Positions 16,213-34,490 of a DNA stretch of 64,000 nt are shown in pieces (the first letter of the stretch is position 1; each line of letters opens with the position of its first letter). A model generated the notes under the pieces. The model was not told the DNA's origin. It saw only the letters and a program-made list of their open reading frames with translations, and did no database searches. The stretch spans positions 1-64,000 of the forward strand of contig PFGG01000047.1 in NCBI GenBank assembly GCA_002783405.1. The letters run 5' to 3'. Made by a program: the position numbers and the translations under genes. Source of the DNA: a bacterium (Candidatus Blackallbacteria) CG13_big_fil_rev_8_21_14_2_50_49_14 (lineage in GTDB: Bacteria > Cyanobacteriota > Sericytochromatia > UBA7694).

Positions 16213-16218
16213 TATAAT
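16213..16218 (+). promoter_or_regulatory. Perfect -10 TATAAT six bases before an ATG
   Basis: TATAAT is followed by GAAGGC and then the ATG at 16225. A TTAACG-type -35 lies 16 bp upstream at 16191-16196. The predicted transcription start coincides with the start codon, so the mRNA may be leaderless. Confidence 0.5.
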
Positions 16219-16224
16219 GAAGGC

Positions 16225-17521: not shown

Positions 17522-18106
17522 ATGCAAAACTTAAGTCTTAACCTTCCGATCAACGACTATTTGATGACTCCTGTCTCCTGCGAAAAGGTTTTTAGCCCCG
17601 AAGAATGCCAAAAATTAATTGAACTCCCCTGTTCCTATCAAAAATATGGGGAAACCATGCAAGCGACCGGCGAGCACAAAGAAGTCAGAGACTTCAGTAT
17701 TCGCTATACCATGAGCAAATATGTCGATCATCTGCCTGAAAACGAATGGGTCTTTGCACGCATTCACCAATTGGTGAAGGAAATCAACCAGGAAACCTTT
17801 AAATTCCGGCTCTTGGGATTTCCCAATTTACAGATTTTGGAATATCCTCTCAATGGCTTTTACCGCATGCATACGGATCTCGGTCAAGGGGTTCATTCTA
17901 CGCGCAAACTCAGTGTGGTCACCCTGCTTTCCGATCCCAAGGATTTTGAAGGCGGAGAATTAATGGGGGCCGATGAAGAGCCCATTCCCTTGTCTCAGGG
18001 CATGGTGGTCATGTTTCCAGCCTATCTTCCCCACCAGGTCAAACCTGTGCTCTCCGGCAAGCGTTACAGCATGGTCACCTGGGTTTTGGGCCCTCCCTAT
18101 CAATAA
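17522..18106 (+). CDS. 2-oxoglutarate/Fe(II)-dependent oxygenase (prolyl-4-hydroxylase-like)
   Basis: Cytosolic Fe(II)/2OG oxygenase of 194 residues. The iron triad is visible: H117 and D119 in RMHTDLG and H171 in LPHQV. R181 in GKRYSMVTWV is placed to bind the 2OG carboxylate. The segment RKLSVVTLLSDP...FEGGEL before the distal His is typical of the P4H/PKHD-type family, whose members hydroxylate proteins or small molecules. The substrate cannot be read from context. It follows a stem-loop and precedes the small haem-motif protein, with no clear operon. Confidence 0.88.
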   Translation: MQNLSLNLPINDYLMTPVSCEKVFSPEECQKLIELPCSYQKYGETMQATGEHKEVRDFSIRYTMSKYVDHLPENEWVFARIHQLVKEINQETFKFRLLGFPNLQILEYPLNGFYRMHTDLGQGVHSTRKLSVVTLLSDPKDFEGGELMGADEEPIPLSQGMVVMFPAYLPHQVKPVLSGKRYSMVTWVLGPPYQ

Positions 18107-18157: not shown

Positions 18158-18520
18158 ATGAAATATATTTACAGTTTCTTATTTGTCGGTGGCCTGCTGT
18201 GGGTCTTGACCCCAACCAGCGAAAGTCATTCGGGCTATCTCGATCAAGTCAGATACAGCTATCAAAATGCGTACCGATGCACTCTCTGCCATGCTCCCAG
18301 CGCCTTGAATCAACTGGGACAGGATCTCGCAAAACTCAACCCACAGGCCCATACCCTGCAAAAAGCCATGAAAACCTGGGCTTTGCTCGACAGTGATGGG
18401 GACGGCTTTAGCAATGAGATCGAATTAAAAACAGGCTGTAATCCTGCGCTGGCAACAGAAAATCCCGGCTTAAACAATTGTGCTAATAAATCCCAGCAAA
18501 AAGGCCTGCAAAAACGCTGA
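18158..18520 (+). CDS. Small exported protein with one CxxCH haem motif and a Ca2+-binding loop
   Basis: 120-residue protein. The N-terminal about 20 residues form a hydrophobic export signal. A single CTLCH motif (C41, C44, H45) would bind haem c covalently if the Ccm/Ccs system acts on it. At 78-90 there is a D-x-D-x-D-G loop (D78, D80, D82) followed by NEIELKTGCNP, as in dockerin or thrombospondin type-3 repeats, so calcium binding is likely. Two more cysteines (in TGCNP and NNCAN) could form a disulfide. No distal haem ligand is obvious. The last 38 bp overlap convergently with the membrane protein at 18483. Function unknown; perhaps a small electron carrier. Confidence 0.72.
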   Translation: MKYIYSFLFVGGLLWVLTPTSESHSGYLDQVRYSYQNAYRCTLCHAPSALNQLGQDLAKLNPQAHTLQKAMKTWALLDSDGDGFSNEIELKTGCNPALATENPGLNNCANKSQQKGLQKR

Positions 18521-19376
18521 AAAGACTGAGTACAACTGCATTTTCAGAGTAAAGGCCAAAGAACAAAAGTCCACCGGCCAAAATCAAACGGCCCCCCAAT
18601 TGAAAGAGATTGTCCCGAAAAGCGTTGGGTTCTAAATGCGACGGGCGCATTAAGAGCCAAGCCAGGCCCAAGCCGATTAAAAGAGAGCCAAAAAGTAAGG
18701 CGTAATCTTGCGCAAAAAGATGCAAATAGCCCAATCCCAAAGGGGGAATCACCAAGGTAAAGAGACAAAATAGCGGAAGTAAAAGTCGCAGATAAATTTG
18801 CCCAATCAACAAAGAATGGCGCAAAGGAAACTCGGGAACCAGATTATGTATCAAGGCCTGGGGCGGTTTCTCGGGACGATCTTCTGCTTGCACAACCCGG
18901 TAGTGAAGAATGGGTAAAATCATGACCCCCAACATAAAACCACTCCAACACACACTGATATAAAGCAGTTTTAAACCTGGAGCACCCATCAGTCCCAAAA
19001 CAAGGATTACCCCAGCCCCCAAGCCCCAACAAACAGCACTCAGCAGTATTTCCCGCAAAGAAGCTGGCCAGCGGCGATACCAAACCGGATAAATCTTCTG
19101 TAAAAAACGGTAAAGATTTTGAATGGGTTTGATTTTCCATTCAAGAATATAACCTGTCACCAAAAGACAAATCCCCAACCCAAAGAGCAAAAGCGCATGC
19201 ATCACCTGGGGATTCTGACCCAAATTTTGACCCACCGACTGTGCCAGTTCAGGTTGGGCCTGAATCAACTCAGCAAGATAATCCTGGGGGTGGGGCAACC
19301 AAGAAAAGCCGACAATTTCAAGCACCCAAAAAAAGAGTGTGGCACAAAGCCACACCAATAAAACATAAATAATCAC
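18483..19376 (-). CDS. Multi-pass membrane protein, unknown function
   Basis: 297 residues with about seven or eight hydrophobic helices (roughly 2-22, 62-80, 110-135, 140-160, 195-218, 225-245, 258-296) and a cytoplasmic Arg/Tyr-rich loop near 95-110. The pattern loosely resembles Yip1-like membrane proteins, but no motif proves it. The start is a GTG at 19376 with a poor Shine-Dalgarno, 30 bp after the stop of the coiled-coil gene on the same strand, so the two are likely one transcript. Its 3' end overlaps the haem-motif gene by 38 bp on the other strand. Confidence 0.65.
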   Translation of the reverse strand: MIIYVLLVWLCATLFFWVLEIVGFSWLPHPQDYLAELIQAQPELAQSVGQNLGQNPQVMHALLLFGLGICLLVTGYILEWKIKPIQNLYRFLQKIYPVWYRRWPASLREILLSAVCWGLGAGVILVLGLMGAPGLKLLYISVCWSGFMLGVMILPILHYRVVQAEDRPEKPPQALIHNLVPEFPLRHSLLIGQIYLRLLLPLFCLFTLVIPPLGLGYLHLFAQDYALLFGSLLIGLGLAWLLMRPSHLEPNAFRDNLFQLGGRLILAGGLLFFGLYSENAVVLSLFSVFAGLFAGIY

Positions 19377-19406: not shown

Positions 19407-20273
19407 TCAAACACGTGCTTTGGAAAATTGTGAAGAAATCTCATCATAGGTTGAGAGATTTTCCTGCAATTCTTCCAGCAACATGTCCATAGCCTCTTCA
19501 TACTGGGCATCAGCGGCAGCATCTTCTTTAAGGGCAGAGGAATCTGCCTGAGCTGCAGTTGCAGCTGCAGCTTTTGCCGCCTGGCGCTCTTCATAGGCCT
19601 GACGGGCCAGTTGTTCGTAATGGTTTTTCTTTTCTTCGAGATCAGCCAATTTCTGTTTCATTGCATTCAATTCGTCGAGATATTCAGTCGTTTGCTGATT
19701 GCCCGTAGAACGCATGCGTTTTTGAAGCGCGTAAACATCGGCTTCCAGATTTGCTACTTGGGTAGAAATGCGTGAAATAATGCCATCTTTGGCTTCAAGT
19801 TGATAAACAAATTCTTCATTTTTGTTTTCAAGGTCCCGAATAAACTGATCCTTTTCAAGAATCATGTCACGGAGCGTATCCAATTCAGCAATGTCCTGCT
19901 GAAACTCACTGTTCTGGCCTTCATACTGTTGAACCAGACGTTTCAGCACGGAAACTTCTTTTTTCTGGTCAGCAATGGTTTGTTTGAGATCTGAAAGAAA
20001 ATCTTCCTGATCCCCACTTTCTCCCATAATCTGATTCAGTTGTTGTTGCAAAAAGTGATTCTCTTTCTGCAATTCACGGTGTTTGGTCAAAAGAGCCTGC
20101 ACAATCACCTGCATCTCTTTTTTGTAACGGGCACGTTGTGCCTCTTTGGTTTTTTGCAACAGATTCAGTTTCTGACGAAGTTCACTGATCTCTACATAGG
20201 GATCCTGTTCTTCCTCTGCTGCGTAATCACCAGATTCCTCCAGTTCGTCATCCGCATCAAAATCGTCAGCCAT
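19407..20273 (-). CDS. Long coiled-coil protein
   Basis: 288 residues, not a recognised enzyme. Residues 1-25 are very acidic (DDFDADDELEESG). Residues about 28-225 are an almost unbroken coiled coil rich in Glu, Gln, Lys and Leu with heptad-spaced Leu/Ile. An Ala-rich stretch (about 228-245) and a last acidic helix follow. No signal peptide or membrane segment, so it is cytoplasmic and probably a scaffold or tether. AAGGGA lies before the ATG. It is divergent from the giant protein at 20627 across about 350 bp and precedes the membrane protein at 18483. A role together with the giant protein is only guesswork from position. Confidence 0.65.
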   Translation of the reverse strand: MADDFDADDELEESGDYAAEEEQDPYVEISELRQKLNLLQKTKEAQRARYKKEMQVIVQALLTKHRELQKENHFLQQQLNQIMGESGDQEDFLSDLKQTIADQKKEVSVLKRLVQQYEGQNSEFQQDIAELDTLRDMILEKDQFIRDLENKNEEFVYQLEAKDGIISRISTQVANLEADVYALQKRMRSTGNQQTTEYLDELNAMKQKLADLEEKKNHYEQLARQAYEERQAAKAAAATAAQADSSALKEDAAADAQYEEAMDMLLEELQENLSTYDEISSQFSKARV

Positions 20274-20626
20274 TCAGCTCTTCCCTTCGTTGATAAAAGT
20301 TAATCGTGGTTGATAGATTGAAGAAAGGACAGTATATCCCCGATCATTATAATACAAGCTTTTGGATCGTGCTTAAAAAATTTTACAAAAAACCAGATCC
20401 TCAAGACTGGAATGCCTGCACTTTATTCATTAAATAAGGATTAAATATATTTTTTAAGAATTAAATTTACGTCAAAAAATCATTTCAAGGGTCAAGAACA
20501 ACAGCTTAGATCAGGATATGTGGACGTGGATAGTTATCTTCACAACGAAGATTTGAGTAGAAAGTTCTGTTTTAAATAAGATTTTTCATTGTTGAGTTTT
20601 ACCACCAAGGGGTTAGTTGAAACACC
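20274..20626. other. AT-rich divergent intergenic region, 353 bp
   Basis: No open frame with coding character. A TATAAT (minus strand, near 20347-20352) could start the coiled-coil gene. On the plus side there are several TTAA-rich stretches (20425-20470) but no confident -35/-10 pair; TTGAGT at 20553 with a TAAATA 14 bases later is a weak candidate. AAGGGG at 20606 is a rather distant Shine-Dalgarno for the giant gene. Its length and AT content suggest a regulated divergent promoter. No RNA gene recognised. Confidence 0.5.
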
Positions 20627-23600
20627 ATGACCAGCATTTTTTCTGGACAACTGTATAATAATTTTCTGACGGATAATAACCAATACCGGTTAGAAAACTA
20701 TGATGTCAATCGGTTTCAGCGCACGATCGAACAGCAGTCCGATCAAGGACAGCGCGAAAAAGAACTGCGTGAAGGCCTGGAATATCACCAGGCCAAAATG
20801 GCAGATCTGCAAACCAAACTCAACGAACTGACAGAAAAACTCAACACCCTCTACCGTCGTTTTATTGATAATAAATCCGCTTTCCGCAAAGTTTCACAGG
20901 AGCCCGAATATTTTGGCACCAGTTCTGCATTAAATGGTTTGGCCAATATCAACTCCACGCCCGATACAGGAGGCTACCCCACTGGGGCTGCTGGCATTAC
21001 CCCCGACGATGACTACGATAAAATCCGCAACTATTCCTGGAACCCCTTCTTTGGCTCTAAAGCGATTGACGAAAGCGACAAAACCGTCAACCGTACCTTC
21101 TGGCAACAACCCGGTGAGATTCTCGAAAAATCCTATACTGAAAATGGGGCCTTCTGGTCAACCGTCTCCTATCTCTGGGGCTGGGATCTGGATCGTATCA
21201 ATGCGACCTATGCCACAACCGATAACAACAATACCCTGCAGGTAAACGTCACGGCCCTGCAACCCAATAAACCGCAATATCCTCCCATGAAAGCAGGTGA
21301 TCGTTTCCCTGTTTATACAGGAGCAGCCGCCAATTATCCGGGTTACCCCGCTGTCAATATGTCGGGAATTCGCCCCGGCGGCGTAGATTATAGCCATGCC
21401 AGTGATACCATCAATACCGGGGGCGACTCCAGTGCAATTTACGCCACAGCGAATATCAGTACCGGGAATGGTACAGGTTCTCCACCTGGAGGAAACCCCA
21501 TTGAAGTTGATAATGCAGCGCCCTTTTTAGTTGGGGACAGTATTACAGTCACCAAAAATGGCTCTACGCCCGTTACCGTCACCATTACAGCCATTGACTA
21601 TGTTTTGAATAAAATCTGGACAGATTCTCCCGCAGGTTCAAATAACAGCAGCGGCGTTCTGACCAAATTGGTAGGGGGGGCATCCTCCTCTGCCAATTTC
21701 AACGTGGTCGGCAAAGACAGTGTCAATTTTGGCTGGGAATTCGATGATCTGCCGATGGCGCTTGAAGTGGTCAGTGTAGACACCCGCCCGGATGGAACCA
21801 CCGTGCCCACCGAATACAAAATGGTCTATGATATTCCACCCACCCACCCCTTTTATGACAGTTTAAAAGTCTTGAACGGTACTGAACCTCAAATTTTAGA
21901 TGCCCCCACTGCAATCAGCCGTGATCGTATTGCCAATAATGGTTTTGATTACAGTGCCTATACCTATATTCCAGGCACCCAGAGCGGCGCAGTCTCCTAT
22001 TCAGTCGATGGCATTCACAATACCGGTGGTCAGGCCTGGAAAGACAATACTGCCGAAAATGAATATCCCCCCCCCAAACTCTATACCTCTGGCACAGTCA
22101 CCGGCGCTTCTTACCCCACCACCAATACCTATGGTGCCAATGACTTCGGCACCGTCGCCAATCCGATTACCGTTTCAACGGCTACCCGTCAGCTCTTTGG
22201 TGCAGGCAATACGATTACCCTGCAACCCCAGGGCATTTCAACCACGATTTCCCAGATCATGTGGAATACTTCCACGACCCGTTCAGATACCGGAACCGGC
22301 AATGCCCCCTCTGAAATTACGGTTGATGACGATCTTTCAGGCATTGCCAATGGTGACTACGTGAGATTCAGCAGCCAACCGGGTTTTATTTACCAGGTCG
22401 ATGCCAACCCCTCCAGCACAGGCTTTACCGTCATTCCCATCAATGGGGGGCCCTCCAATCCTGTTACAGCAGGTTCTGCAGGAGTCACGGTCAGTCTCTT
22501 CTCTGATGCTGCCGCCACCATTCCCAAATTTGCCAAAGAGGGGATTGTGGTCAACAGCCCTGCCGTCACCGATGTCGTCTCTATCAAAATGCCCGACGTG
22601 ATTGGGGCCACCGAGCCCCTGATCAGTTTCACCTTGGATGCCTGCAGTGATATCAGCATTACCAATGCCACCATGGTGAATATGAAATACGCCTTCCGCA
22701 TTCACCAGAACTACAAACAATTCGCATCCCCCGGCGATGACCCAATCCCCAAGCCTCCTCAGGATTACAGCAACCACGACTGGACCAGTTATCCCCCAGA
22801 CAGTGACTTTGTTGGCAAAGCTTATGGGACAAACACCTTTGCCCATGCCATGCCCCCTTTTACCTATCTGAGCAACTCCCCCATGGGGGCGGGCCCAGTG
22901 CTGCTGGGACAATCAGATCTGGTTGCGAATCTCTCAACCGATGCCTATTTCTCTGGTTCCACAGAAAAGGTAAGCGCCGAAGTGGTACAGGGCCCCAGTT
23001 CAAACCAAGTCGTAATCAATGTCTATTTCGACGGTGACCTGAATGGCTTTGAAATGAAAATCGAAGACGTGCAATTGGTCACCTATGACGGCACCTTGGG
23101 AACCTGGACCCAGGGCAAATACAATGCCGGCAATGTGCCCCCCATCATTCAAAATGGGGACCCCACCGTACTTCAGGCCAATAGCCCGGACGAAGTCATC
23201 AATAAATATATTCCTGGGATTTACCAATTTACCCAATTCAATGATCAATACAATATTCAGCATACGGCGGCTGATCGCAACGATATCGTGCGCAGCCCCT
23301 GGGAGTTTGCTGAATTGGATCTGGGCGCAAATTCAACCCTCAGTGGCGAATACTTTGTGGATCTCAACAGCCGCCGTTTGAATCTTCAATCGGATCCGCT
23401 TCAGGCCCAGATTGATGGCTGGGGCACCACAGGCAATGCTGCGGTTTCAAGCACCAACTTTAATTTGCTCACCAATGGCGTTGCCGAAGCCCATGACTTC
23501 GTAGCAGTAACCTTGCCAGGTGACACCTGTGCCACGGCCAGCAACCCCAGTGAAGCTTACCAGTTTGCCGATGCAGATCCGCTCACGTTTGCCGATGCAG

Positions 23601-26600
23601 GGGTCTATTCTGCCGCAACAGCGGCTCAGCGCGCCGATACCCAAATGGATGAGGTCATGCAGGGGGAAGCCCCACAAACATCGACCGTCCCCTATTTGGA
23701 TCCTCTGCGCACAGCCAATCCGGGTGCGGTGATTACCCCCGACTACTACAGTCTGAATTCCACCCCACCGCCCATTTTCAGTCCTGTGCCCAACTCTCTG
23801 ACAAATCCACCTGATACCGACTTTACAAATACGATTGACCGAATTGGGGCAGCGATTAAATCCAGCGATCCTGCCGGAACACCACGCCTGGATTTCAATC
23901 TCACCATTCCCACTTCAGACGTCAATGTTCTGCGCAATGAAAACAATCTGCTCATGAACTTGGGCTCGATTGAGCGCCGGGACATGTCGATCAATATCAC
24001 CTCGGCAGATATGTATGTACGTACGGTTCCTGGTTATACCACGGTTCCCCGTTACCGCGTAGACGCAGGTGGAAATATTTATGACCAGTTTGGCAAGGGC
24101 TATTATGATCCGCTCAATGCCAACGATGTACTCTCTTCGCAGCGTGTTTATACAACAGGCGGCGGAGCCACCAAAAATGGCCAAGTCAGTAACTTTGACA
24201 ATGCCAACAATGCGACCTTCAATGCGGCCTATAATACAACTTACGCCGGAGCAGGAAGTTTTGAAGCCTATGTCAACCAACACGATCGCTTGCCCATGGC
24301 CAATGACGACTACAATCTCTTTGACTATGTGCCCGACCTGAATCTGGTGCCAGGAGATACCGAAGGGCGTAGATTCGGAGAAAGCTATGTGGGTTCCTTG
24401 CCCAGTAATTTCTACTATTACCGTGAAGATCTCGATAATTCAGTAGATGCTGCAGGCGGAGCCAATACCCCCACCGGCAACTCCACCCTTCTGGGCGGGC
24501 CCAAAAACTTTAATAACGATGGCATGGCCGCACTGAACTTCGATGGTCGCAAATCCAATATGGCAGGAACCTATACCGGTGACCATACCTACGTTTCCAA
24601 TGCCAATATGCCGTCTTTTGCCAATGTGACCCTGGGGTATGTTGAGCAAAATGCCAAAATGTACAATACCCAACGCACAACCACGCAAGCAGTATGGTTG
24701 GGCTTTCCAGGCCTGAATGGAGAGACCAAATACGCAGAAAATGTGGTAAGTTCCAGCAATGTGACCAATGCCGTCAATGCCTTGGGCAATAATACGGCAA
24801 TTGCCACCATGAACTTCAACAACTCAAGTATTATTCTCGATATGGGGCAAGAGGTGAACCGAGGCGGTACATTGATCCTAAACGAGAAAAATGCCTTGGG
24901 CAATATTGATCCCCATGTCATTCCCTTGCCCCTGCTCGACTATACCGCCCCCTATCCTGATTTTGACGATCCGGATAACCCGGCCGACCCCATAGCCACC
25001 TCCTTTACCTTCAATGCCTATGGTGCAGAAACAGTCACCCGTACAGGCAGCAAGTACATGAGCTTCCGTAGCGTACTGGACGGAGTGGATGGCAATCTGG
25101 ATGGATCGATCAGTCTGGCCAGTGCCAAAACACTGCTTGGGCAAGCCGGGGGCGTTTTTGCCTCTGGTGAAGCTGAGCCTGATACCTGGCCCAATGGGGT
25201 TTTGCTCCATGTCGATGATGCCGAGGGCTTTATCATGGAAAACCCCAAGAATATTGTCACCCTGGGGACCGACCCGACAGAATACCGCGTGGTTTATAAA
25301 AATACAACCACAAGACCTCAAACCATTTTCTTGATCCGCAACGATGGGGGGGCGATCGGCAATACTTTAGGCAGTGCAGCCACCGTCTCAGATTTGGTTC
25401 ATGCCGATTTGCAAATCCGTGCGAAGACCGGTCAATATACCGTTCAAGTCACCGATGCTGCCGGCAACCCCGATCCCCACGGCAGCAATGTCAAAATCGA
25501 CTATGACGCCTTGGGCACCCAACAACCGGGTCAATTGGCCAGTATTGGTATTTCTTCTGACTATGACCGCGTGGGTCGCCTTGCTGGCGATGATCCGCGT
25601 ACCACAGCCGTGGAAAACAACCGAATTGCGCCGGAACTCTTTGATTCTCCTCATGGCTATGTACAACCCGATGCTCAGGTGGCTCTCAACCTGATCGCCC
25701 AGGATGATGATGGCAATCCACGCCCCCGCCGTCTCAAATCGGTAAAAGTACAAGTAGAAAGCGGAGAACAGCTGATTCCCAGTACCTTGAAACAATCCTA
25801 CTCCACTACCGGTGTAGGCGGTGTTTTCAACTATACCGATGGTGCCGGTGATTGGCCCATTGCCCTCTTTGAGGAAGATACACAGCTCAACCCGATTGTC
25901 ACCAATGACCTCAATTATTTCGTAGGGCTCTTCCAGGGGATTACGGCTTCAAATGCAACAGCCGCCACCCCCACGCTGACGGTAACAGACGCCTTTGGAT
26001 TGAGCATTGGTCAAAAGGTAACCATTAACGGAGAACGGCGTATTATTGCTGATATCTCGGGCACCACTGTCACCTTAGACGCCCCCCTTTCCACAGAACC
26101 GAAAGTCGGGGATGTGATCGGCGTGGGCAATGGTTTGGGCACCCAGGATATTCAAATGTACCTGAACCGCTCTGTGGCCATGTCGATGGGCGCAGGCATG
26201 AAGGTCACCCTGGAATGGGAAGAATATGATGTTACGGGCTTCCCTCCCAAGGTGGATGTCGCCAATACCCGCCCGGTTACAGAAACCATTGGTTTTGGAG
26301 ATACCTCACCGGCCACCCAATTCACTATTTCCAATACCAATGCGGGTACCACCACCATTAGCCTGGATGCACCGATTACAGCTGCACAAGCAGCCAAATT
26401 CACAAACGGCACCAAGGTGAATATCAACGGGATTACGCGCACCCTGACAGCCAATGCGGTTGCTGGAGCAAGCACCATTACCGTCGACCAACCGGTGGTG
26501 ACCTCTTTGGGACAGCCCTTAAAATCAGGTACCATCAGCCAGATCAATTATGAAAATTATCTGGCGGTCGGTGAAGGCCGTACCGGAGGCAGCAAAGAAA

Positions 26601-26815
26601 ATGAGTTTACTCAAGAACTCAAGCGTATTTTGGATAACCCTGAATACAAGGATGTCTTCAAATATGGCCTGTTCAAGAGTATCTTTATCAGCGCTGCCAC
26701 CAATGACCAGTTCAACGATTTGATCTCAAGCAAACTTTTCTTGAATTGGGATCGTATCCGCAAACAGGTCGAAGTTCAACAGACCTCGTTTATGGCTTAC
26801 TATAAGTCTATCTAG
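20627..26815 (+). CDS. Giant beta-rich structural protein, 2062 aa, helical ends, no signal peptide
   Basis: Not recognised. Residues about 20-95 form a coiled coil (REKELREGLEYHQAKMADLQ region). The central about 1850 residues are rich in Asn, Thr, Asp, Gly, Pro and Tyr, with few Lys and almost no Cys, as in surface or appendage proteins. At least four segments look like related small beta domains with the pattern hydrophobic-GxxVxINGxxRxI...TxxLDxP: about 290-350, 510-620, 1780-1833 and 1894-1971. The last about 90 residues are again helical (from about 1975, rich in Lys, Phe, Asp). Helical ends around a variable beta centre recall axial appendage proteins, exported without a Sec signal, but no family signature is seen. 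The gene is followed after 5 bp by the double kinase-like gene, clearly in one operon. Base composition matches its neighbours, so no sign of recent transfer. Confidence 0.8.
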   Translation: MTSIFSGQLYNNFLTDNNQYRLENYDVNRFQRTIEQQSDQGQREKELREGLEYHQAKMADLQTKLNELTEKLNTLYRRFIDNKSAFRKVSQEPEYFGTSSALNGLANINSTPDTGGYPTGAAGITPDDDYDKIRNYSWNPFFGSKAIDESDKTVNRTFWQQPGEILEKSYTENGAFWSTVSYLWGWDLDRINATYATTDNNNTLQVNVTALQPNKPQYPPMKAGDRFPVYTGAAANYPGYPAVNMSGIRPGGVDYSHASDTINTGGDSSAIYATANISTGNGTGSPPGGNPIEVDNAAPFLVGDSITVTKNGSTPVTVTITAIDYVLNKIWTDSPAGSNNSSGVLTKLVGGASSSANFNVVGKDSVNFGWEFDDLPMALEVVSVDTRPDGTTVPTEYKMVYDIPPTHPFYDSLKVLNGTEPQILDAPTAISRDRIANNGFDYSAYTYIPGTQSGAVSYSVDGIHNTGGQAWKDNTAENEYPPPKLYTSGTVTGASYPTTNTYGANDFGTVANPITVSTATRQLFGAGNTITLQPQGISTTISQIMWNTSTTRSDTGTGNAPSEITVDDDLSGIANGDYVRFSSQPGFIYQVDANPSSTGFTVIPINGGPSNPVTAGSAGVTVSLFSDAAATIPKFAKEGIVVNSPAVTDVVSIKMPDVIGATEPLISFTLDACSDISITNATMVNMKYAFRIHQNYKQFASPGDDPIPKPPQDYSNHDWTSYPPDSDFVGKAYGTNTFAHAMPPFTYLSNSPMGAGPVLLGQSDLVANLSTDAYFSGSTEKVSAEVVQGPSSNQVVINVYFDGDLNGFEMKIEDVQLVTYDGTLGTWTQGKYNAGNVPPIIQNGDPTVLQANSPDEVINKYIPGIYQFTQFNDQYNIQHTAADRNDIVRSPWEFAELDLGANSTLSGEYFVDLNSRRLNLQSDPLQAQIDGWGTTGNAAVSSTNFNLLTNGVAEAHDFVAVTLPGDTCATASNPSEAYQFADADPLTFADAGVYSAATAAQRADTQMDEVMQGEAPQTSTVPYLDPLRTANPGAVITPDYYSLNSTPPPIFSPVPNSLTNPPDTDFTNTIDRIGAAIKSSDPAGTPRLDFNLTIPTSDVNVLRNENNLLMNLGSIERRDMSINITSADMYVRTVPGYTTVPRYRVDAGGNIYDQFGKGYYDPLNANDVLSSQRVYTTGGGATKNGQVSNFDNANNATFNAAYNTTYAGAGSFEAYVNQHDRLPMANDDYNLFDYVPDLNLVPGDTEGRRFGESYVGSLPSNFYYYREDLDNSVDAAGGANTPTGNSTLLGGPKNFNNDGMAALNFDGRKSNMAGTYTGDHTYVSNANMPSFANVTLGYVEQNAKMYNTQRTTTQAVWLGFPGLNGETKYAENVVSSSNVTNAVNALGNNTAIATMNFNNSSIILDMGQEVNRGGTLILNEKNALGNIDPHVIPLPLLDYTAPYPDFDDPDNPADPIATSFTFNAYGAETVTRTGSKYMSFRSVLDGVDGNLDGSISLASAKTLLGQAGGVFASGEAEPDTWPNGVLLHVDDAEGFIMENPKNIVTLGTDPTEYRVVYKNTTTRPQTIFLIRNDGGAIGNTLGSAATVSDLVHADLQIRAKTGQYTVQVTDAAGNPDPHGSNVKIDYDALGTQQPGQLASIGISSDYDRVGRLAGDDPRTTAVENNRIAPELFDSPHGYVQPDAQVALNLIAQDDDGNPRPRRLKSVKVQVESGEQLIPSTLKQSYSTTGVGGVFNYTDGAGDWPIALFEEDTQLNPIVTNDLNYFVGLFQGITASNATAATPTLTVTDAFGLSIGQKVTINGERRIIADISGTTVTLDAPLSTEPKVGDVIGVGNGLGTQDIQMYLNRSVAMSMGAGMKVTLEWEEYDVTGFPPKVDVANTRPVTETIGFGDTSPATQFTISNTNAGTTTISLDAPITAAQAAKFTNGTKVNINGITRTLTANAVAGASTITVDQPVVTSLGQPLKSGTISQINYENYLAVGEGRTGGSKENEFTQELKRILDNPEYKDVFKYGLFKSIFISAATNDQFNDLISSKLFLNWDRIRKQVEVQQTSFMAYYKSI

Positions 26816-26820
26816 AGGCT

Positions 26821-29800
26821 ATGCAGGATAAAAACTGTCCGCACGGGCATTCGGTTCTTGCCGATGCCCGTGTTTGCGTGACCTGCGGTTGGATTTTTGC
26901 CTTGCCCCCCGGTACGTACTTGGGCGCCTGGAAAATTCTTGAATCACAACGTCGGCATGACCGCTATTTTTACCGTGTTACAAACGGTTCAGATACAGGT
27001 CTGATTGCAGAAACGCTTGAATACTTTCAAGCCAAAACCCGCGAAAAGATCTATCAAACACTCAACCCCATGCTTGCAGAAAGAGGGCAGGCCATTCTCG
27101 ACTATGGCCATTGGCAAGCAGAAAATTTACAGTTTTTGCATACCCGTTATACTGAAGATCTGTGGCCTATTGTACAAACGCCCTTAAGATCCCAGCTTGA
27201 CCAAACCGGTATTTTAGCCCCCGAAGATTTAGTGGGACTCTTTCAAAGCCTGCAAAGCCTGGGAATTCAACTGCAGGAAAGAAAACTGCTCAACCCCAGT
27301 TTAACTTCTCTCCTCACCGGAAAAGACGCCCAGGGTCAATGGCGTTTTCTCGAATGGGAATACTGTGTTTTTGAATCTCAGGAACTGCTTTACCCACGCT
27401 ATTTTCTGGGCTACCACAGTGCCCGCAACCGACAGGAAAAAGCTCCCGAAGCCTATCATTTTCATCTGATGCGCTCAGCACTTCGGGCCCTGCTTTTGGA
27501 AAGCATCACAGGTTCTTCACCTGTGGAGTGGTACCCTGAGCCCCTATCCATTCAGGCAGTAAAAGTCTTGCTCAGTACAGAATTCAGACGTTGGCTGGAA
27601 GATTTTGAAACAGCTCCTGATCCACGCAGAATCAAAAACCTGCCTGCCTGCTACAGTTCAGATCAGGCACGTCAAACCTTACAAAAATCAAGCCAACTCT
27701 TTGCAGAGGGCTACGCCCTGTTTCAGGCTGGAAAACTCCAAAACGCGCTCCCCTCTTTTGAACAGGCCTGTCGCCAGCATCTTTTGTTTTCACAAGCCTA
27801 TCGTTTTCAGGCACTTTGTCTGAGAAGCCAAGACTACCCGACCTTTTTACGCCTGATTGACCAAGCCTTAAGAAGTGAAGAGCGGGCCTGCTTTTACTAT
27901 GAAAAAGCGCAGGGCCATATTCTCAATCAAAAAATAGAAAAAGCGGCATCAGACCTGCTGCGCGCAATTGCGATTGCTCCCTATTATCCCGAAGCCTGGT
28001 ACCTCTTGGGTTCCTGCCAGGAAAGAATGTCCCAATTTAACCTGGCAGAAGCGGCCTATAAAAAAGCCTGGCAACAGCGCCACAATCCCCGCTTTAAACA
28101 GGCTCTCGCTGAATTGTTTGAAAAGCAAGGCCTGCCCGAACAGGCAAAAAAATATCGGCAGGGAACGTTAAGTTCAGGTACGCGGGCACGCTTTCACACA
28201 GAAACCGCTCAAACAGCTGAAACCATTCTTTGCCGCAAAGGTCACCGCAACTCACCAGAACAAGCCTGGTGCCAACGTTGTATGCTCCCTCTCGGTCTTG
28301 AGGTCGGAGATCAGATTCAAGGCTATACCATTCTGGAATGTCTGAAACACCGAAACCCAGATCTTGAAAATTTCAATTCCGTCTACCGCGCCCAAACAGA
28401 AGAGGGTGTAGAGGTTTTGCTGAAAGAACAGTTCATTCCAGCAGCTAAACGCCAGGATTTTTTGTATAAATATGAATATCTGCTTAAAATACAGCACGAT
28501 TATATTCAAAACATTCAAGACGTTTTTCTTGTTGAACCCTATGGTTATTTGATTTATCCCTGGCAAAAAGGAGAAACCCTTCAAGATTATCTGGAAAGAA
28601 AAGGAGCTGCGCCGGAACAGACTGTTTGGCAAATCCTGATCACCGTCGCCTCTGTCATCATACATTTACAAGCCCTCGATCCCCCCCTGGTGCATGGGGA
28701 TATCAAACCCGGCAATATTCTCTTGACTGAAACAGGAGATATCAAACTCTTCGACCTGGATTCCTTCCTGGCTATTCCCCCTGATTTTCAACCCTACCAA
28801 CCGATTGCGACTTTCCCCTATGCCCCTCCCGAACAGGAAAACCAGCATCAGGTCAACCAGACCAGTGATAGCTACGCTTTGGGCATCACGCTGATGGCAG
28901 CTTTGACGGGTATTTTTCCTGAAATTTTTCTTTCCTTTGGCCGCAAACGTTTTCTGAAATGGGAAAACTCTATTCCCCATATTTCAGTTCAACTCAAAAA
29001 TATTATCAACGAGCTAACGTACTGGGATATTCACAAACGCAGTCTTTTAAGTCGGGAAAAATTACGCCCATGGCTTCAAGATTTCAAAAATCTTCAACCC
29101 CTGCCCGTGCCTGAAAAATTCAAACGTTTTCAAGCGGCCTTTTGGGCTGTGCATCGCGCAAAAACAGAACAATTGGATGAAAAAATTCGGGCATTGCTGC
29201 AAATTGAAACCAGCCGTATTACCTTACATTTTTGTGCTTCTCGCCTGTATCAGGAAAACAAACTCACGGAAGCACTCCAACTCCTGCGCAATATTCAAAG
29301 CTTTGGAACAGTCCATGAAAACAGTCTCTGGTTATTGGGGGAGCTCTATCTCAATCTGGGTTATTTCAAATCAGCCGTTGAAGTGCTGAACCAGTCTTTG
29401 GACAGTTGCAAAGATAAATTCTGGCCTTATATTCTGCTGGCCCGCAGCTATATCGGACTCAAGCAGGATCGTCTGACTCTGGTGGCCTATGAACAGGCCC
29501 AAAGACGGAATGCGTCCTCAGGTTTTGTGCTGGAATATATCAGCGTGCTGTTTGAAAAAATGTATTTTCAAGAAGCCTTGGACAAAGCACAAAAACACCT
29601 CTTGCTGACGGATCTTCCCCATGAGCGCGCTTTTTTACACGGAATTTCAGGTAAATGTTTGAGTTCTCTCAACCTGAATGAAGAAGCACTCAAAGAATTA
29701 CAGGAATCCTTACGCTGGCAAGCAGAACAGCCTGCCATTCTGTTTGAAGCCGGAAAGATCTGTCTGCGCCTCAGCCAGCCAGAACAGGCACGTTTTTATC

Positions 29801-30195
29801 TCAAGGGTTGCCTGGAGCAAACACCAACACACCATGGCGCACGTTTTTATCTGGCACGCGCAGAAATTGAGAGTAAAAATTTTGAAACCGGGCTTGAGAT
29901 TTTAAACAGCCTGAAGCCTCAAACACATGAAGATCGGGTAGATCTGCGCTTTCAAAAAGCACGGGTCTTGACCTTGATGCAACGCTTTGACGAAGCAGAA
30001 GCGTGTTATCAGGAGTTAAAAGAGCTTGCGCCCTGTGAAGCGGTCAGTGTCAATTTTGGAAATCTCTGCCTGATTCTGCACAAATATGAAAAAGCCCAAG
30101 CCCTCTTTCAAGAGGCCCTGGGCTTTAATCCCGATTCATTTCAAGCACTGCACGGCTTAAAACTCTTGAATTCGCTCCCTGTTTCAGGAAACTGA
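26821..30195 (+). CDS. Tandem zinc ribbon / kinase-like / TPR protein, 1124 aa
   Basis: A large cytoplasmic protein in which the same module occurs twice. Half 1: zinc ribbon C6, H10, C19, C22 (CPHGH...CVTC); a kinase-fold remnant at about 30-260 without HRD/HGD or DFG residues; TPRs at about 290-445. Half 2: zinc ribbon C471, H475, C484, C487 (CRKGH...CQRC); a kinase domain at about 495-755 with candidate Lys K535, catalytic loop HGDIKPGN (D627, N632), metal motif DLD in place of DFG (D645) and APPE at 668-671; then about ten TPRs to the end. The second kinase keeps the key residues and may be active; the first looks like a pseudokinase. Its ATG lies 5 bp after the giant gene, with AGAGG across that stop. 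It may sense, assemble or regulate the giant protein (inference). Its 3' end overlaps the next, convergent gene by 12 bp. Confidence 0.85.
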   Translation: MQDKNCPHGHSVLADARVCVTCGWIFALPPGTYLGAWKILESQRRHDRYFYRVTNGSDTGLIAETLEYFQAKTREKIYQTLNPMLAERGQAILDYGHWQAENLQFLHTRYTEDLWPIVQTPLRSQLDQTGILAPEDLVGLFQSLQSLGIQLQERKLLNPSLTSLLTGKDAQGQWRFLEWEYCVFESQELLYPRYFLGYHSARNRQEKAPEAYHFHLMRSALRALLLESITGSSPVEWYPEPLSIQAVKVLLSTEFRRWLEDFETAPDPRRIKNLPACYSSDQARQTLQKSSQLFAEGYALFQAGKLQNALPSFEQACRQHLLFSQAYRFQALCLRSQDYPTFLRLIDQALRSEERACFYYEKAQGHILNQKIEKAASDLLRAIAIAPYYPEAWYLLGSCQERMSQFNLAEAAYKKAWQQRHNPRFKQALAELFEKQGLPEQAKKYRQGTLSSGTRARFHTETAQTAETILCRKGHRNSPEQAWCQRCMLPLGLEVGDQIQGYTILECLKHRNPDLENFNSVYRAQTEEGVEVLLKEQFIPAAKRQDFLYKYEYLLKIQHDYIQNIQDVFLVEPYGYLIYPWQKGETLQDYLERKGAAPEQTVWQILITVASVIIHLQALDPPLVHGDIKPGNILLTETGDIKLFDLDSFLAIPPDFQPYQPIATFPYAPPEQENQHQVNQTSDSYALGITLMAALTGIFPEIFLSFGRKRFLKWENSIPHISVQLKNIINELTYWDIHKRSLLSREKLRPWLQDFKNLQPLPVPEKFKRFQAAFWAVHRAKTEQLDEKIRALLQIETSRITLHFCASRLYQENKLTEALQLLRNIQSFGTVHENSLWLLGELYLNLGYFKSAVEVLNQSLDSCKDKFWPYILLARSYIGLKQDRLTLVAYEQAQRRNASSGFVLEYISVLFEKMYFQEALDKAQKHLLLTDLPHERAFLHGISGKCLSSLNLNEEALKELQESLRWQAEQPAILFEAGKICLRLSQPEQARFYLKGCLEQTPTHHGARFYLARAEIESKNFETGLEILNSLKPQTHEDRVDLRFQKARVLTLMQRFDEAEACYQELKELAPCEAVSVNFGNLCLILHKYEKAQALFQEALGFNPDSFQALHGLKLLNSLPVSGN

Positions 30196-32364
30196 ATTCG
30201 CGCGCAGATTGCTCGCTTCAGGATCAACCGTATGTGAAACACCTGAATTGCGCAAATTGCCCCCTGTTTTGGGCCAAGGCGCACTGGCGGGAACATTGGG
30301 TGTCGAAACCTTTAAAGCGTGCATCAAGACAAACTGACGATCGCCCCCATCCACAGTCGAGACATAAAGCAAGCCATTGCGCAGATTCAAACCGTTCCAG
30401 AGTGTTCCACCAGGAGAGGTTTCCCATTCCAATTGGCCTTGTGTACCCTTATCGCGAATAGCATAGAGTTTGGCATTACTCAAACCTGTATACAGCAATC
30501 GGCTGCCATCAAGCTCAGCACCAACCAAAAGCCCTGCATACACCTTATTCTCTGTTGAGGTGGTCACACGGAAAGGACTGGTCCATTTGGCGGTCCCGTC
30601 TTCCCAATAGGCGTAAATAAAAGCATTTTGAGCTGATGGAGTGGTTTGATCCTTGTTGGAGATCAGATAAATCACATCTTTGTTATTTTGGCGATCCACA
30701 ATCGGGGCATGGGAAAAAGGCACATTTCCAAAATTCACATCCGTTGTCCATTTGACGCTTCCATCAGGGTTAAAAGCTTTGAGACGGCTGTTCGAGGTGC
30801 TGGTAGATAAAACGTAAACCGTTCCATCTGTACCAATCACAGGGGATACCCTTGCGCCGGAACCCAGGCTGACTGTTTGCACCAAACTGCCGTCACTGCG
30901 ATTTAAAATAATCAGATCACTGGCTGTGCTGCTATTGGTAACAAAATAAAGTTTACTGCCATCTTTAGAAACAGCGCCGCCACTGACGGTAATACTGTTA
31001 TTTGCAAGATTATAGAACCAGACTTGGGAACCCGTTGTGCCGTCGGCTGCTGTTCCAGCACCACCTGCCCGGGCCTGTTTCAAAGCATAAATCCCACTGT
31101 GGGTACTGTCTGCATTGATATAGGTGTACACAAAGTCTTCATCATCACATTTGCAACTTGGATTGACTCCCTGATCACGCCAGAGCAAGAGCGGAGCATG
31201 CACTTTATCGGAAGAACCATAGTTATTGATCGAAAAAGGAAAGGTATAGGACCAAATCTCGGTGGCATTGCTTTGATCCAAGGCATGCACCCGACCAGTA
31301 TTGCTGCTTCCCACCTGTTCAATATCCAAATAAAACAGAGAGGCTTTTTCGGAATTGCCCGTGGGGTTGGTAGCCCCCAAAACAATTTCAGGACTCATAA
31401 TTTGATGCCCCGTGACAGGGTTAAAATTAGCCGTGAAGTTTTTCAAGCCCGAAGCCGCATCAAGGGTTGTGCTGGCAGACAGACCATAGACTTTTTCACT
31501 GGCGGTATTGCCGTCTAAAGCATCATTGAAAAAAGCCCAGCCATTATTGGCGTTCAGAGCGACTGCCTGATCAGCCCCATAGGTACCAGAGGTCATCACA
31601 TAACGCGCAAAGGCAAAGGGAGTAAGCTGGTAATTCGTGGGGGTCAGACCTGAACCTGTGGTATTGTTAACAGCCGCTATCGTGCCTTTGTTGATCTCAA
31701 GTGCCAAAGCCCGTGGTGAAAGTGCCTGCGGCGTCGCAGGGTTCAAAGACGTCAAACGGGTAAAGCTTAAAACATTATTGGTGACCGTGGCGCCTGTTAA
31801 GCCATTCACAAAGGATTGATAGGCATTCAAATCAAGTGCTGTATTGAGTATTGTTGAACTCATTTTGTGCAGTTCTTCAACAATGGCGCCAGTCAAATGG
31901 GTTTGCATACTCACCGAAACAGCCCCTGTCAAAGGCACATGGAAGGCATTTTTTAGCTCCAGAATTGGAGGGGAGGTTTTATTGCTATAGAACCCCACCG
32001 TGACCACCCAATTATTGCCATCGGGAATCTGGGCACCTAAAGAAAAAGGTGTGGCAGCATTCACAACCTGAACAAACCCCTGAGCATCTGCACGGGAGTC
32101 ATAAACAGTCTGAGCGCCATTCACAGCTGTCAGCTTAATATAATTGGCTTGGGCGGTTTGCTTCACAGCAAAGCCAGCCTGCGAAGGATCCACCTGGAAA
32201 CGCACAAAACGCGTTTGGGCAGATTTGGACAAAGTCTGACTGCCGGAAGAAACTTGAGGATCTAAGCTTAAAGCAGGTTGAATCACTGACTTTTCGGAAC
32301 AAGCAGAAAGCATTCCCAAAGAAATACTTAAAAGCAAGGGTACTGTCAACTTATGAAACTTCAT
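30184..32364 (-). CDS. Lipoprotein with PQQ-type beta-propeller
   Basis: 726 residues. The signal peptide ends in lipobox LSAC, so it is a lipoprotein. Residues about 45-250 form a beta-rich, Thr/Asn-rich N-terminal domain. From about 265 on there are WD/PQQ-like blades with motifs such as SDLIILNRSDGSLV, DGTVYVLSTS and GSVKWTTDV, ending near 715. A Cys cluster CKCDDEDF lies at about 405. Similar propellers include BamB-like scaffolds and quinoprotein-like proteins; the dehydrogenase active site is not visible, so a binding or scaffold role is more likely. GGGAGG precedes the ATG. It resembles the lipoprotein at 36423 in repeat type but not in N-terminal part. Confidence 0.82.
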   Translation of the reverse strand: MKFHKLTVPLLLSISLGMLSACSEKSVIQPALSLDPQVSSGSQTLSKSAQTRFVRFQVDPSQAGFAVKQTAQANYIKLTAVNGAQTVYDSRADAQGFVQVVNAATPFSLGAQIPDGNNWVVTVGFYSNKTSPPILELKNAFHVPLTGAVSVSMQTHLTGAIVEELHKMSSTILNTALDLNAYQSFVNGLTGATVTNNVLSFTRLTSLNPATPQALSPRALALEINKGTIAAVNNTTGSGLTPTNYQLTPFAFARYVMTSGTYGADQAVALNANNGWAFFNDALDGNTASEKVYGLSASTTLDAASGLKNFTANFNPVTGHQIMSPEIVLGATNPTGNSEKASLFYLDIEQVGSSNTGRVHALDQSNATEIWSYTFPFSINNYGSSDKVHAPLLLWRDQGVNPSCKCDDEDFVYTYINADSTHSGIYALKQARAGGAGTAADGTTGSQVWFYNLANNSITVSGGAVSKDGSKLYFVTNSSTASDLIILNRSDGSLVQTVSLGSGARVSPVIGTDGTVYVLSTSTSNSRLKAFNPDGSVKWTTDVNFGNVPFSHAPIVDRQNNKDVIYLISNKDQTTPSAQNAFIYAYWEDGTAKWTSPFRVTTSTENKVYAGLLVGAELDGSRLLYTGLSNAKLYAIRDKGTQGQLEWETSPGGTLWNGLNLRNGLLYVSTVDGGDRQFVLMHALKVSTPNVPASAPWPKTGGNLRNSGVSHTVDPEASNLRANSVS

Positions 32365-32720: not shown

Positions 32721-34490
32721 ATGTCAAACACATCCTCAGAGACAGCCTCTTTATCCTCAGCCCTTCAATGGCTTTGGCCTTTTTGGAAACCCCTCAGCCC
32801 ACGTCTGCTTTTTCTGATTTTCACCACTCCCCTGGTGGTACTCTTTGATGCCTGGGTTCCCATGTTGGTACGTCAGATTATCGACGAACTGCAAAAAAAT
32901 TCACTTCAGGAAGCCTGGCTGCTTGAAAAATCCTTATGGATTCTAGGCCTGGGCCTGGCGCATTTCATTCTCTACGTGGCCGTGCAAAGTACCCGTGGCA
33001 TGACCAATTTTCGTTTTGAACACGATTTTCGCATGCGTCTGGCGCGTAAAATTGTCACACAAGGCCAATCCTTCTTTTACCATTTTCGCACAGGCGATGT
33101 TTCTACCCGTTTGATTGACGATATCAGCGAGAATAAACTGGGTTGGTTTGCCTGCAGTGGTATATTCAGACTCTACGAAGCTCTGTTGATGATTGTGGGC
33201 TGTGTCTGGTTTATGTCGCAGTTGCATCTCGGGCTGACCTTGCTGACGACTGTGCCGCTGGGTTTTGTCAGCATTTTCTATATTCATTCTTCACGCCGTA
33301 CCCAAGCTTTTTCACGCCACAGCCAGAAAGCCATTTCTGCCCTTAACAGTTTTCTCACCAGCACCCTTGAAGGGATTCGGGTCGTAAAAGCCTATGACCA
33401 AGGTGAACGGCAGATTGCAAGCTTTTCTGAGGTTGTCAAACAACAGATGCAGAAAGAAATTGCCCTGGTCAAGGTCTCTTCTCTGCTCCAGCTGAGCTAC
33501 AGCCGTTTTTCTGAATTGGGCCTCTTGATTATGATTGGTATTGGGGGTTGGCTGGTGATTCACAAAGCCATGAGCCTGGGCTCTCTGATTGCCTTCAACT
33601 CCTATATTTTTATGTTGATCTGGCCCATGGTAGACCTGGGACAATTTTTTATCAAAGGACGTACGGCAGGCGTTTCAGTCGAAAGAGTGCGTGAAATGGA
33701 AGCCTTTCCCCCTGATATTCTGCCGCAGGCCGACGCCCTGCCCTTTCCCACCGGCAAATTTGCATTAAGCTTTGAAAATATTGATTATCAGTTTGCGACA
33801 GGCCAAGGGCTTGCAAAGATTTCTTTGGCGACCCATTCCGGCGAAACCCTGGCCCTGGCAGGCCCTGTGGGCAGCGGAAAAACTCTTTTGCTCAATCTTA
33901 TTCCCCGCATTATTCAGCCTCAAACAGGCAAACTATTGCTGAATGGACAAGAACTCTCTCGCTACGATTTGCAGGAACTGCGCCAGAAAGTAGGCTATGT
34001 CAGCCAAATTCCCAGTCTTTTTTCTGAAACCATTGCCAACAATATCCGCTTTGGCCGTGAAATCTCCCCTCAGAAACTGCAAGCAGCCATTCAAGTCGCG
34101 CAATTGGAACAGGATCTCGCACTTTTTCCAGAGGGGCTTGAAACCCGTGTGGGACAACACGGTGTGCGTCTTTCAGGCGGGCAAAAACAACGCATCGCAA
34201 TTGCCCGAGCCTTGGCGGGCAGCCCCCGAATTCTGATTCTCGATGATTGTACCTCTGCTCTGGACGCCGAAACAGAATCGCGGCTCTGGCAATCTCTTTA
34301 CCGCCTGATGCCCGATTTGATGGTCTTGCTGGTTACCCACCGGGTCAGCACACTGCAGCGAGCCGATCGCGTGGTTTTACTCTCTCAGGGCAAAATACGC
34401 GCCCAAGGCAGCCATTTAAACCTCTTGGCGAGCGATAAGCTCTACCAGGAAATTTATGGCCAGCCGGATGTATTTATCGATGAAGCTTAA
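32721..34490 (+). CDS. ABC exporter half-transporter (ABCB/YheI-like)
   Basis: Fused membrane and ATPase domains, 589 residues. About six helices span residues 25-310. The ATPase has Walker A GPVGSGKT (381-388), Q-loop near 429, signature LSGGQ (484-488), Walker B ILILDD (504-509) and H540. The residue after Walker B Asp is D509 where the catalytic Glu is normal. That is typical for one partner of heterodimeric exporters such as the BmrC/YheI type, where this half forms the degenerate site. No partner gene is in the window, so the second half may be elsewhere, or the Asp may suffice. Substrate unknown (lipid or drug). No Shine-Dalgarno is obvious in the 14 bases after tRNA-Leu. Confidence 0.92.
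   Translation: MSNTSSETASLSSALQWLWPFWKPLSPRLLFLIFTTPLVVLFDAWVPMLVRQIIDELQKNSLQEAWLLEKSLWILGLGLAHFILYVAVQSTRGMTNFRFEHDFRMRLARKIVTQGQSFFYHFRTGDVSTRLIDDISENKLGWFACSGIFRLYEALLMIVGCVWFMSQLHLGLTLLTTVPLGFVSIFYIHSSRRTQAFSRHSQKAISALNSFLTSTLEGIRVVKAYDQGERQIASFSEVVKQQMQKEIALVKVSSLLQLSYSRFSELGLLIMIGIGGWLVIHKAMSLGSLIAFNSYIFMLIWPMVDLGQFFIKGRTAGVSVERVREMEAFPPDILPQADALPFPTGKFALSFENIDYQFATGQGLAKISLATHSGETLALAGPVGSGKTLLLNLIPRIIQPQTGKLLLNGQELSRYDLQELRQKVGYVSQIPSLFSETIANNIRFGREISPQKLQAAIQVAQLEQDLALFPEGLETRVGQHGVRLSGGQKQRIAIARALAGSPRILILDDCTSALDAETESRLWQSLYRLMPDLMVLLVTHRVSTLQRADRVVLLSQGKIRAQGSHLNLLASDKLYQEIYGQPDVFIDEA

What the first reader, a model, noticed from the sequence alone, without database searches (positions are those of the whole stretch)
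20627..30195. Two-gene unit: giant beta-rich protein plus a tandem zinc-ribbon/kinase/TPR protein
A 2062-residue protein with helical ends, a long Asn/Thr/Asp-rich beta centre and no signal peptide is followed after 5 bp by an 1124-residue kinase-like/TPR protein. I know no described system with this pair. A structural protein (appendage, sheath or internal scaffold) served by its own kinase/TPR assembly or control factor would be new. This is the best candidate in the window for an undescribed system.
Basis: partly seen in the sequence, partly recalled or inferred. Interest (0 to 1): 0.8.

Follow-up and report, generated by a model that had tools for sequence, protein, structure and literature searches.

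The report
Giant surface-protein family with kinase partner
A 2,062-residue protein without known relatives and the kinase encoded beside it belong to a set of very large proteins seen so far only in some non-photosynthetic relatives of cyanobacteria, where they are likely exported by a second flagellum-like machine and would build an undescribed cell-surface structure, with the kinase predicted to control that step.

Summary
Both genes are real and as described. The giant matches no Pfam, NCBIfam, PHROG or PDB sequence. Relatives occur in 8 of 292 sampled genomes of the phylum, all in one class (Candidatus Sericytochromatia by record names). In the window's family 5 of 5 genomes have giant and kinase side by side (6 loci); second copies and giants of other families lack the kinase. 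The giant's last 80 residues lead to a second, syntenic operon of large, cysteine-poor proteins without signal peptides (326, 395, 1025, 1563 aa) plus a TPR protein. These genomes also carry a second flagellar-type gene set. Its long hook occurs in 7 of 8 genomes with giants and 0 of 10 without; a 221-aa companion family in 8 of 8 (one weak) and 0 of 10. A TTAAA-N5-ATTAA repeat precedes giants, second operon and second hook. Best reading (0.42): outer or axial proteins of a second, flagellin-independent flagellar-type system, with the TPR/kinase as cytoplasmic partner. Common descent of the protein ends, co-occurrence and adjacency are shown; export, assembly and phosphorylation are inferred. 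Against: the base of the second system also exists in ten genomes without giants, and no flagellar fold or family was detected.

The parts
20627..26815 (+). Giant protein, 2062 aa, cysteine-poor, acidic, no signal peptide seen
20627..20911 (+). N-terminal region of the giant (about aa 1-95); aa 28-92 of the giant profile match the 1025-aa family
   Evidence: profile-profile match 92.4%, E 5.3e-7
24710..25564 (+). Giant aa 1362-1646: predicted beta-sandwich with an insert, like carbohydrate-binding-type domains
25925..26143 (+). Giant aa 1767-1839: predicted small beta-barrel, like part of a phage tail tube protein
26570..26812 (+). C-terminal domain (last 80 residues) shared by the whole superfamily
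   Evidence: profile A3; profile-profile match to the 1025- and 326-aa families
26821..30195 (+). Kinase/TPR protein, 1124 aa: Cys ribbon, degenerate kinase-like part, TPRs, second Cys ribbon, kinase, TPRs
28381..28920 (+). Kinase domain (aa 521-700) with Lys535, Asp627, Asn632 and Asp645 invariant in 6 of 6 orthologs
30184..32364 (-). PQQ-propeller lipoprotein, convergent with the kinase gene; a relative lies by the giant in 8 of 9 loci of the family
19407..20273 (-). Coiled-coil protein (288 aa), divergent from the giant; kept in 4 of 5 kinase-type loci with this flank visible
18483..19376 (-). Predicted membrane protein (297 aa), after the coiled-coil gene in the same 4 loci
17522..18106 (+). 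2OG-Fe(II) oxygenase; related enzymes lie next to two giants of G005. Possible modifier, unproven
20430..20444 (+). Repeat TTAAA-N5-ATTAA, 197 bases before the giant's start codon

Best explanation
The giant protein is likely an exported, axial-type structural protein of a second, flagellin-independent flagellar-type system, and the kinase/TPR protein encoded behind it is predicted to be its cytoplasmic partner that holds it and gates its release by phosphorylation. Shown: the giant shares its N- and C-terminal regions with proteins of a conserved operon that also encodes a TPR protein. Shown: genomes with this set carry a long second hook protein and a 221-aa companion family, and giants, operon and second hook share an upstream repeat. 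Inferred: export through the second system, assembly outside the cell, chaperone action of the TPRs, and control by the kinase.
For: Superfamily: the giant's C-terminal profile finds a second conserved locus, an operon syntenic in G000, G001, G002, G004 and G006, with a TPR gene at its end; N- and C-ends of the 1025-aa family match the giants at 92-93%. Outside character: median Cys 0.10% in 44 giants, pI 4.2-4.8, no N-terminal hydrophobic stretch. Second flagellar set: two full FlhA in 12 of 18 class genomes, two FliF in 13 of 18; in G000 the second set is on C57 and C4. Co-occurrence: long hook 7 of 8 against 0 of 10; 221-aa family 8 of 8, one of them weak, against 0 of 10. Chain of neighbours: in G007 the 221-type gene follows a superfamily member and its TPR gene; in G000 and G003 a 259-aa homologue is one and two genes away from a second FlhB. 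Repeat: 13 of 149 intergenic gaps, 9 of them before giants, second-copy loci, second operon or second hook; five control patterns give 3, 1, 3, 1 and 0; the hook sites in G000, G001 and G002 were not used to define it. G005 and G006 have giants but no flagellin hit.
Against: The base of the second system (FliF, FlhA) is also in the ten class genomes without giants. G005 has giants and the long hook but no FliF or FlhA was found, and G004 no FliF (87% and 73% complete). No giant or operon lies next to a gene of the second set. The FlhB neighbourhood is seen in 2 of 5 genomes examined (not in G002 or G004; G001 contig ends nearby). The 221-family match in G006 is partial and weak (E 3.8e-4). Genome-wide the repeat is only 57 against 38 control hits and is absent before the giants of G003 and G004. 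No flagellar, type III chaperone or hook family is met by the giant or the TPR part. The 395-aa family matches the giants only through the 326-aa family (direct score 4.6%). Export and kinase activity are untested. Confidence lowered from 0.45 to 0.42 on recounting these links.
Confidence: 0.42

Rival explanations
1. The giant is likely a large surface adhesin or S-layer-like protein exported by a type I or another route unrelated to the second flagellar set; the shared repeat and co-occurrence would reflect a common surface regulon only.
For: Large, acidic, Cys-poor, Asn/Thr/Asp-rich protein without signal peptide; predicted carbohydrate-binding-like sandwich; PQQ lipoprotein beside it; an ABC exporter-type gene at 32721-34490 with a relative in G001.
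Against: No RTX or other type I signature in Pfam; no HlyD/TolC-type partner was noticed beside the giant in the loci read; relatives of the ABC gene were not grouped with it next to giants outside the genus.
Confidence: 0.22
2. The giant is likely a cytoplasmic or cell-pole scaffold that the kinase/TPR protein assembles; it is never exported.
For: No signal peptide; cytoplasmic-type kinase/TPR partner directly downstream in 6 loci; divergent coiled-coil gene.
Against: Cys content far below that of the window's other long ORFs (0.10% against a median of 0.69% in 33); PQQ lipoprotein neighbour; co-occurrence with a long hook.
Confidence: 0.2
3. The giant and its relatives are likely parts of a domesticated phage tail or a tailocin.
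Against: Best PHROG E 0.35; TM-scores by target length reach at most 0.34 in the 50 viral rows listed; the same barrel region also matches cellular proteins; I noticed no tail genes in the loci read, but did not search them all for phage families.
Confidence: 0.03

Closest known systems
Flagellar axial proteins (rod, hook, hook-associated proteins, flagellin)
   Same: Several paralogs with common N- and C-terminal regions and very different middles, no signal peptide, few cysteines, found with a flagellar-type export gene set
   Different: No Pfam flagellin, rod or hook match to the giants or the operon proteins scanned; the C-terminal region is modelled as short helices plus three strands; about four times flagellin size
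Type III secretion TPR chaperones (SycD/LcrH, SctY)
   Same: A TPR protein is encoded beside the giant and beside the 1025-aa protein; weak matches to both models
   Different: Far below the cut-offs (SctY 42 of 70 bits, LcrH/SycD 25.6 of 104.8); fused to Cys ribbons and a kinase
Non-motile flagellar bodies of Buchnera (PMC8109811, start of abstract seen in a search listing)
   Same: Flagellar basal bodies and export machinery kept without an ordinary filament
   Different: Here most genomes also keep an ordinary flagellin, and the second set comes with a new family of giant proteins
Hanks-type Ser/Thr kinases with Cys ribbons and TPRs
   Same: Pkinase match and invariant Lys535, Asp627, Asn632, Asp645
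   Different: Glycine loop not recognisable; two kinase-like parts, the first without a catalytic loop by reading

Membership tests
Flagellar axial proteins | Match to flagellin, rod or hook family models | tested here: not met
   No such match for the giant, the compact relative, the 611-aa member and the operon proteins scanned; the 395-aa protein was not scanned
Flagellar axial proteins | Common N- and C-terminal regions across several paralogs | tested here: met
   1025-aa family against giants: 93.3% (C-end) and 92.4% (N-end); 326-aa family 96.3% (C-end only); 1563-aa family 60-66%
Flagellar axial proteins | Terminal helical coiled-coil fold and polymerisation | tested here: inconclusive
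   Compact relative modelled poorly (pLDDT 41.6); N-terminal half of the giant not modelled; no fold match listed
Flagellar axial proteins | Export through the flagellar-type export gate | not testable with these tools
   Only co-occurrence, neighbour chain and repeat
Type III secretion TPR chaperones | Score above the SctY or LcrH/SycD cut-off | tested here: not met
   42 of 70 and 25.6 of 104.8 bits
Hanks-type protein kinases | Pkinase match with catalytic residues kept | tested here: met
   E 6.4e-21, 75.4 bits against a cut-off of 31.7; Lys535, Asp627, Asn632, Asp645 in 6 of 6 (roles assigned from recall)
Phage structural proteins | Match to a PHROG structural family | tested here: not met
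   Best E 0.35, unknown function
Phage structural proteins | Tail-tube-type fold over a whole domain | tested here: inconclusive
Type I-secreted RTX adhesins | RTX repeats with an ABC/HlyD/TolC export set beside the gene | tested here: inconclusive
   No RTX match in the giant; an ABC exporter-type gene lies three genes downstream but the other parts were not searched for

The most novel reading that the evidence does not exclude
Part of the Sericytochromatia carries a second, flagellin-free flagellar machine whose outer part is built from a new superfamily of giant beta-rich proteins, each set with its own TPR partner; in the window's family that partner has become a Cys-ribbon kinase that licenses export of a 2,000-residue subunit.
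Probability: 0.33. Interest if true: 0.88.

Novelty: new variant of a known kind. Interest (0 to 1): 0.67.

Why it matters
If true, a flagellar-type export system can build an outer structure that is not a flagellin filament, from subunits about four times the size of flagellin, in a sister class of the cyanobacteria. It gives concrete targets (second FlhA and FlhB, long hook, 80-residue end domain, kinase) for asking what a second flagellum without flagellin does, and it would make phosphorylation control of such export testable.

Tried and rejected
AlphaFold of the compact 864-aa relative failed (mean pLDDT 41.6). The window's C-terminal part (aa 871-2062) reached 62.5 overall, with most of aa 1320-2060 at 70-93. 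Foldseek gave nothing in the PDB at E 0.001 or better and only partial viral matches. No flagellar fold was listed, which does not exclude one.

A FliA-type promoter was sought before the giants and not found. A looser form of the repeat with variable spacing was too common to mean anything: 69 hits in 773 kb. Of the 57 exact sites in G000, 9 were already in view, 43 were read in 40 fetched regions and 5 were not looked at. Several of the 43 lie before lipoprotein-like genes, others inside ORFs; with 38 control hits genome-wide I claim no regulon from these. Three stand out because they fit: before the 221-aa gene, the 259-aa gene and a 265-aa hook-type gene. The repeat precedes the 259-aa gene of G001 but not the 221-aa gene of G001 nor these genes in G002, G003 and G004.

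Four searches of the held paper library listed no description of such a system; only listings and starts of abstracts were seen, and no paper was opened.

Idea dropped: giants as replacement flagellin, since 6 of the 8 genomes with giants have flagellin hits. Idea left open: hydroxylation of the giants by neighbouring oxygenases; the G002 neighbour and one of the three candidate genes in G006 had no Pfam match.

Rows left out or partial: of the 9 hits, the 501-aa P0052 was not aligned in A1. G004 is fragmented, and one giant there has no visible 3' end (L023). G003 (83% complete) lacks the long hook. The 149 gaps come from loci chosen for this study, not a random sample, and the repeat was first noticed by eye in some of them. 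In one search the promoter of the second operon of G001 was masked by an overlapping ORF; it carries the repeat.
Full report
WHAT IS THERE. The window lies in genome G000. Its same-genus relative G001 has a contig that agrees in length and match position with a record titled 'MAG: Candidatus Sericytochromatia bacterium isolate MAG_89'. The giant has no family match, 2 cysteines, pI 4.4 and no N-terminal hydrophobic stretch. A protein search gave 44 relatives of 1686-2202 aa; the five source names that show an organism all say Candidatus Sericytochromatia. An alignment of 51 members is conserved along its length, with low-occupancy inserts near aa 251-350 and 501-650 and, less so, near 1901-1950.

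HOW CONSERVED IS THE PAIR. Of 59 genomes, own included, 8 have a giant. In the window's family 5 of 5 genomes have a giant directly followed by the kinase/TPR protein (6 loci; G004 has two), and the five best kinase matches among 18 class genomes, each over most of the protein, are these loci. The second-copy loci of G000 and G001 have a PQQ lipoprotein upstream and no kinase downstream; a third, in G004, is cut before its 3' end. The giants of G005 and G006 (about 1700 aa) and the compact relatives of G007 have no kinase next to them. So the pair is a trait of one family. The PQQ lipoprotein is by the giant in 8 of 9 loci of this family where that flank is visible and in 0 of 5 fetched loci of the other families, some of them short. 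A coiled-coil gene and a membrane-protein gene lie divergently upstream in 4 of 5 kinase-type loci with that flank visible.

THE KINASE. Six orthologs align over both halves (21-55% identity to the window's protein). Lys535, Asp627, Asn632 and Asp645 of the second kinase domain are invariant in 6 of 6; the glycine loop is not recognisable; by reading, the first half lacks a catalytic loop. Cys6, Cys19 and Cys22 are invariant; the second ribbon is there in 4 of 6. I infer an active kinase with a degenerate twin.

A SUPERFAMILY. A profile of the last 80 residues, built from 12 sequences, found a second locus besides the giants. In G000 (contig C60) an operon encodes proteins of 161, 211, 326, 395, 1563, 1025, 179 and 299 aa, the last a TPR protein; a tRNA-synthetase-like gene (by reading) lies inside it in G000 only, as far as seen. 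Its order is kept in G001, G002, G004 (contig cut) and G006; the 161-aa gene was matched only in G001, and the 395-aa gene was not matched in G006. Profile-profile comparison joins the 1025-aa family to the giants at the C-end (93.3%, E 2.8e-7) and N-end (92.4%, E 5.3e-7) and the 326-aa family at the C-end (96.3%). The 326- and 395-aa families match over their full length (100%), while the 395-aa family alone does not reach the giants (4.6%). The 1563-aa family is weaker (60-66% to the giants, 85% to the compact set). None of the six non-TPR operon proteins scanned has a curated family; the 395-aa one was not scanned. G007 has a 611-aa member followed by a 129-aa gene, a TPR protein and a 221-type gene. 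The set is found in 8 of 292 genomes drawn from the phylum. A search with the 326-aa family gave 64 relatives; one source name says Sericytochromatia and one Melainabacteria.

A SECOND FLAGELLAR-TYPE SET. FlhA-type proteins are in 17 of 18 class genomes, with two full-length copies in 12. FliF is double in 13, single in G003, G006 and G016, and not found in G004 and G005. In G000 one FlhA is on contig C55 and one on C57, both above the flagellar FlhA cut-off. The C57 copy sits with FliF and, by reading, FliE, FlgC, FlgB, a sigma factor, FlgJ-like, FlgI, FlgH, FlgA and two rod proteins, ending in an Ala/Pro-rich, FliK-like frame. Contig C4 ends in a similar frame and carries FliJ, FlgD and a 567-aa hook-type protein; the two contigs are probably neighbours (inference). 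FliJ is above its cut-off and the 567-aa protein above that of the FlgE/F/G subfamily, while FlgD, the FliA/WhiG-type sigma factor and the FlhB of contig C11 (a piece was scanned) are below theirs. None of G000's four flagellin hits lies on C57 or C4. G005 and G006 have no flagellin hit, and G006 has only the second-type FliF and FlhA; both genomes are incomplete (87% and 74%).

LINKS BETWEEN THE TWO. (a) Long hook: matches over most of its length in 7 of 8 superfamily genomes (E 3.4e-72 or better; in two or more pieces in G006 and G007), only end-domain matches in the other ten (best E 3.0e-25); G003 has none of the former. (b) The 221-aa family: 8 of 8 and 0 of 10, but the G006 match is short and weak (E 3.8e-4). 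In G007 it follows the 611-aa member and its TPR protein. Its 259-aa homologue is one gene from FlhB in G000 and two genes from FlhB in G003; no FlhB lies near it in the stretches of G002 and G004, and the G001 contig ends nearby. (c) Repeat: TTAAA-N5-ATTAA lies 150-200 bases before the giants of G000, G001 and G002, before the second-copy loci of G000 and G001, and before the second operon of G000 and G001. It was first noticed there by eye; it was then also found between flgD and fliJ of the second set in G000 and, in stretches fetched afterwards, in G001 and G002, not G004. In 149 intergenic gaps of fetched loci it occurs in 13 (9 of them the above kinds), while the reversed pattern and four other spacings occur in 3, 1, 3, 1 and 0. 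It was not seen in the fetched stretches with flagellin, FlgE, FlgK/FlgL and FliF genes of the ordinary flagellum (for contigs C20, C65, C11; for C64). Genome-wide the excess is modest: 57 against 38.

READING. Proteins with common ends and different middles, no signal peptide and almost no cysteine, encoded with TPR proteins and co-occurring with a long second hook, are best explained as outer or axial proteins of the second flagellar-type system. The giant would be the largest subunit and the kinase/TPR protein its cytoplasmic partner. Export, assembly and phosphorylation are inferred. The main weakness: the base of the second system is also present in ten genomes without giants, so the link rests on hook, companion family and repeat. 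Confidence 0.42 (0.45 before the links were recounted).

NOVELTY. Four searches of the held library list no paper that describes such a set in this class (listings and starts of abstracts only). As a system it would be a variant of a known kind, flagellar-type export; as a protein superfamily it has no relatives found by sequence.

Noticed in passing
L037:5318-6556 (G000:C80): A 413-aa protein joins a helix-turn-helix domain (HTH_17) to the C-terminal, cytoplasmic half of FlhA (FHIPEP, 6.9e-49), beside what read as FliP, FliR and FlhB genes: a possible DNA-binding sensor of export.
   Followed up: partly
G000:C20:75071-77524 and many G007 contigs: Many extra hook/rod-like proteins: 43 match rows in G007 alone, and 646-649-aa hook-like ORFs in G000 with counterparts in G001, G002, G003 and G004.
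   Followed up: no
window 16077-16224: The same TTAAA-N5-ATTAA repeat lies between divergent genes (a lipoprotein that reads as a subtilisin-like protease, and a 404-aa protein) and is kept in G001.
   Followed up: partly
window 55604-56125: The repeat also lies before a 322-aa protein whose start is rich in Ser, Pro and Gln.
   Followed up: no
L028:2832-4058 (G005): Fusion of a sulfotransferase domain and a 2OG-Fe(II) oxygenase, four genes from a giant; a second 2OG oxygenase is its direct neighbour.
   Followed up: partly
L030:1841-5761 (G006): Four genes run on directly behind the giant; one has a clear JmjC_2 match, one a match just below the cut-off, two none.
   Followed up: partly
L005:5492-6898 and 15458-16144 (G000:C53): The second giant copy is flanked by genes that read as a histidine kinase and an OmpR-type response regulator, candidate regulators of the repeat.
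   Followed up: no
window 59681-62629: 982-aa protein with many TPRs and a glycosyltransferase family 41 (O-GlcNAc transferase type) match.
   Followed up: no
window 9959-12604: 881-aa protein with DUF5117 and a Met-zincin domain (DUF4953).
   Followed up: no
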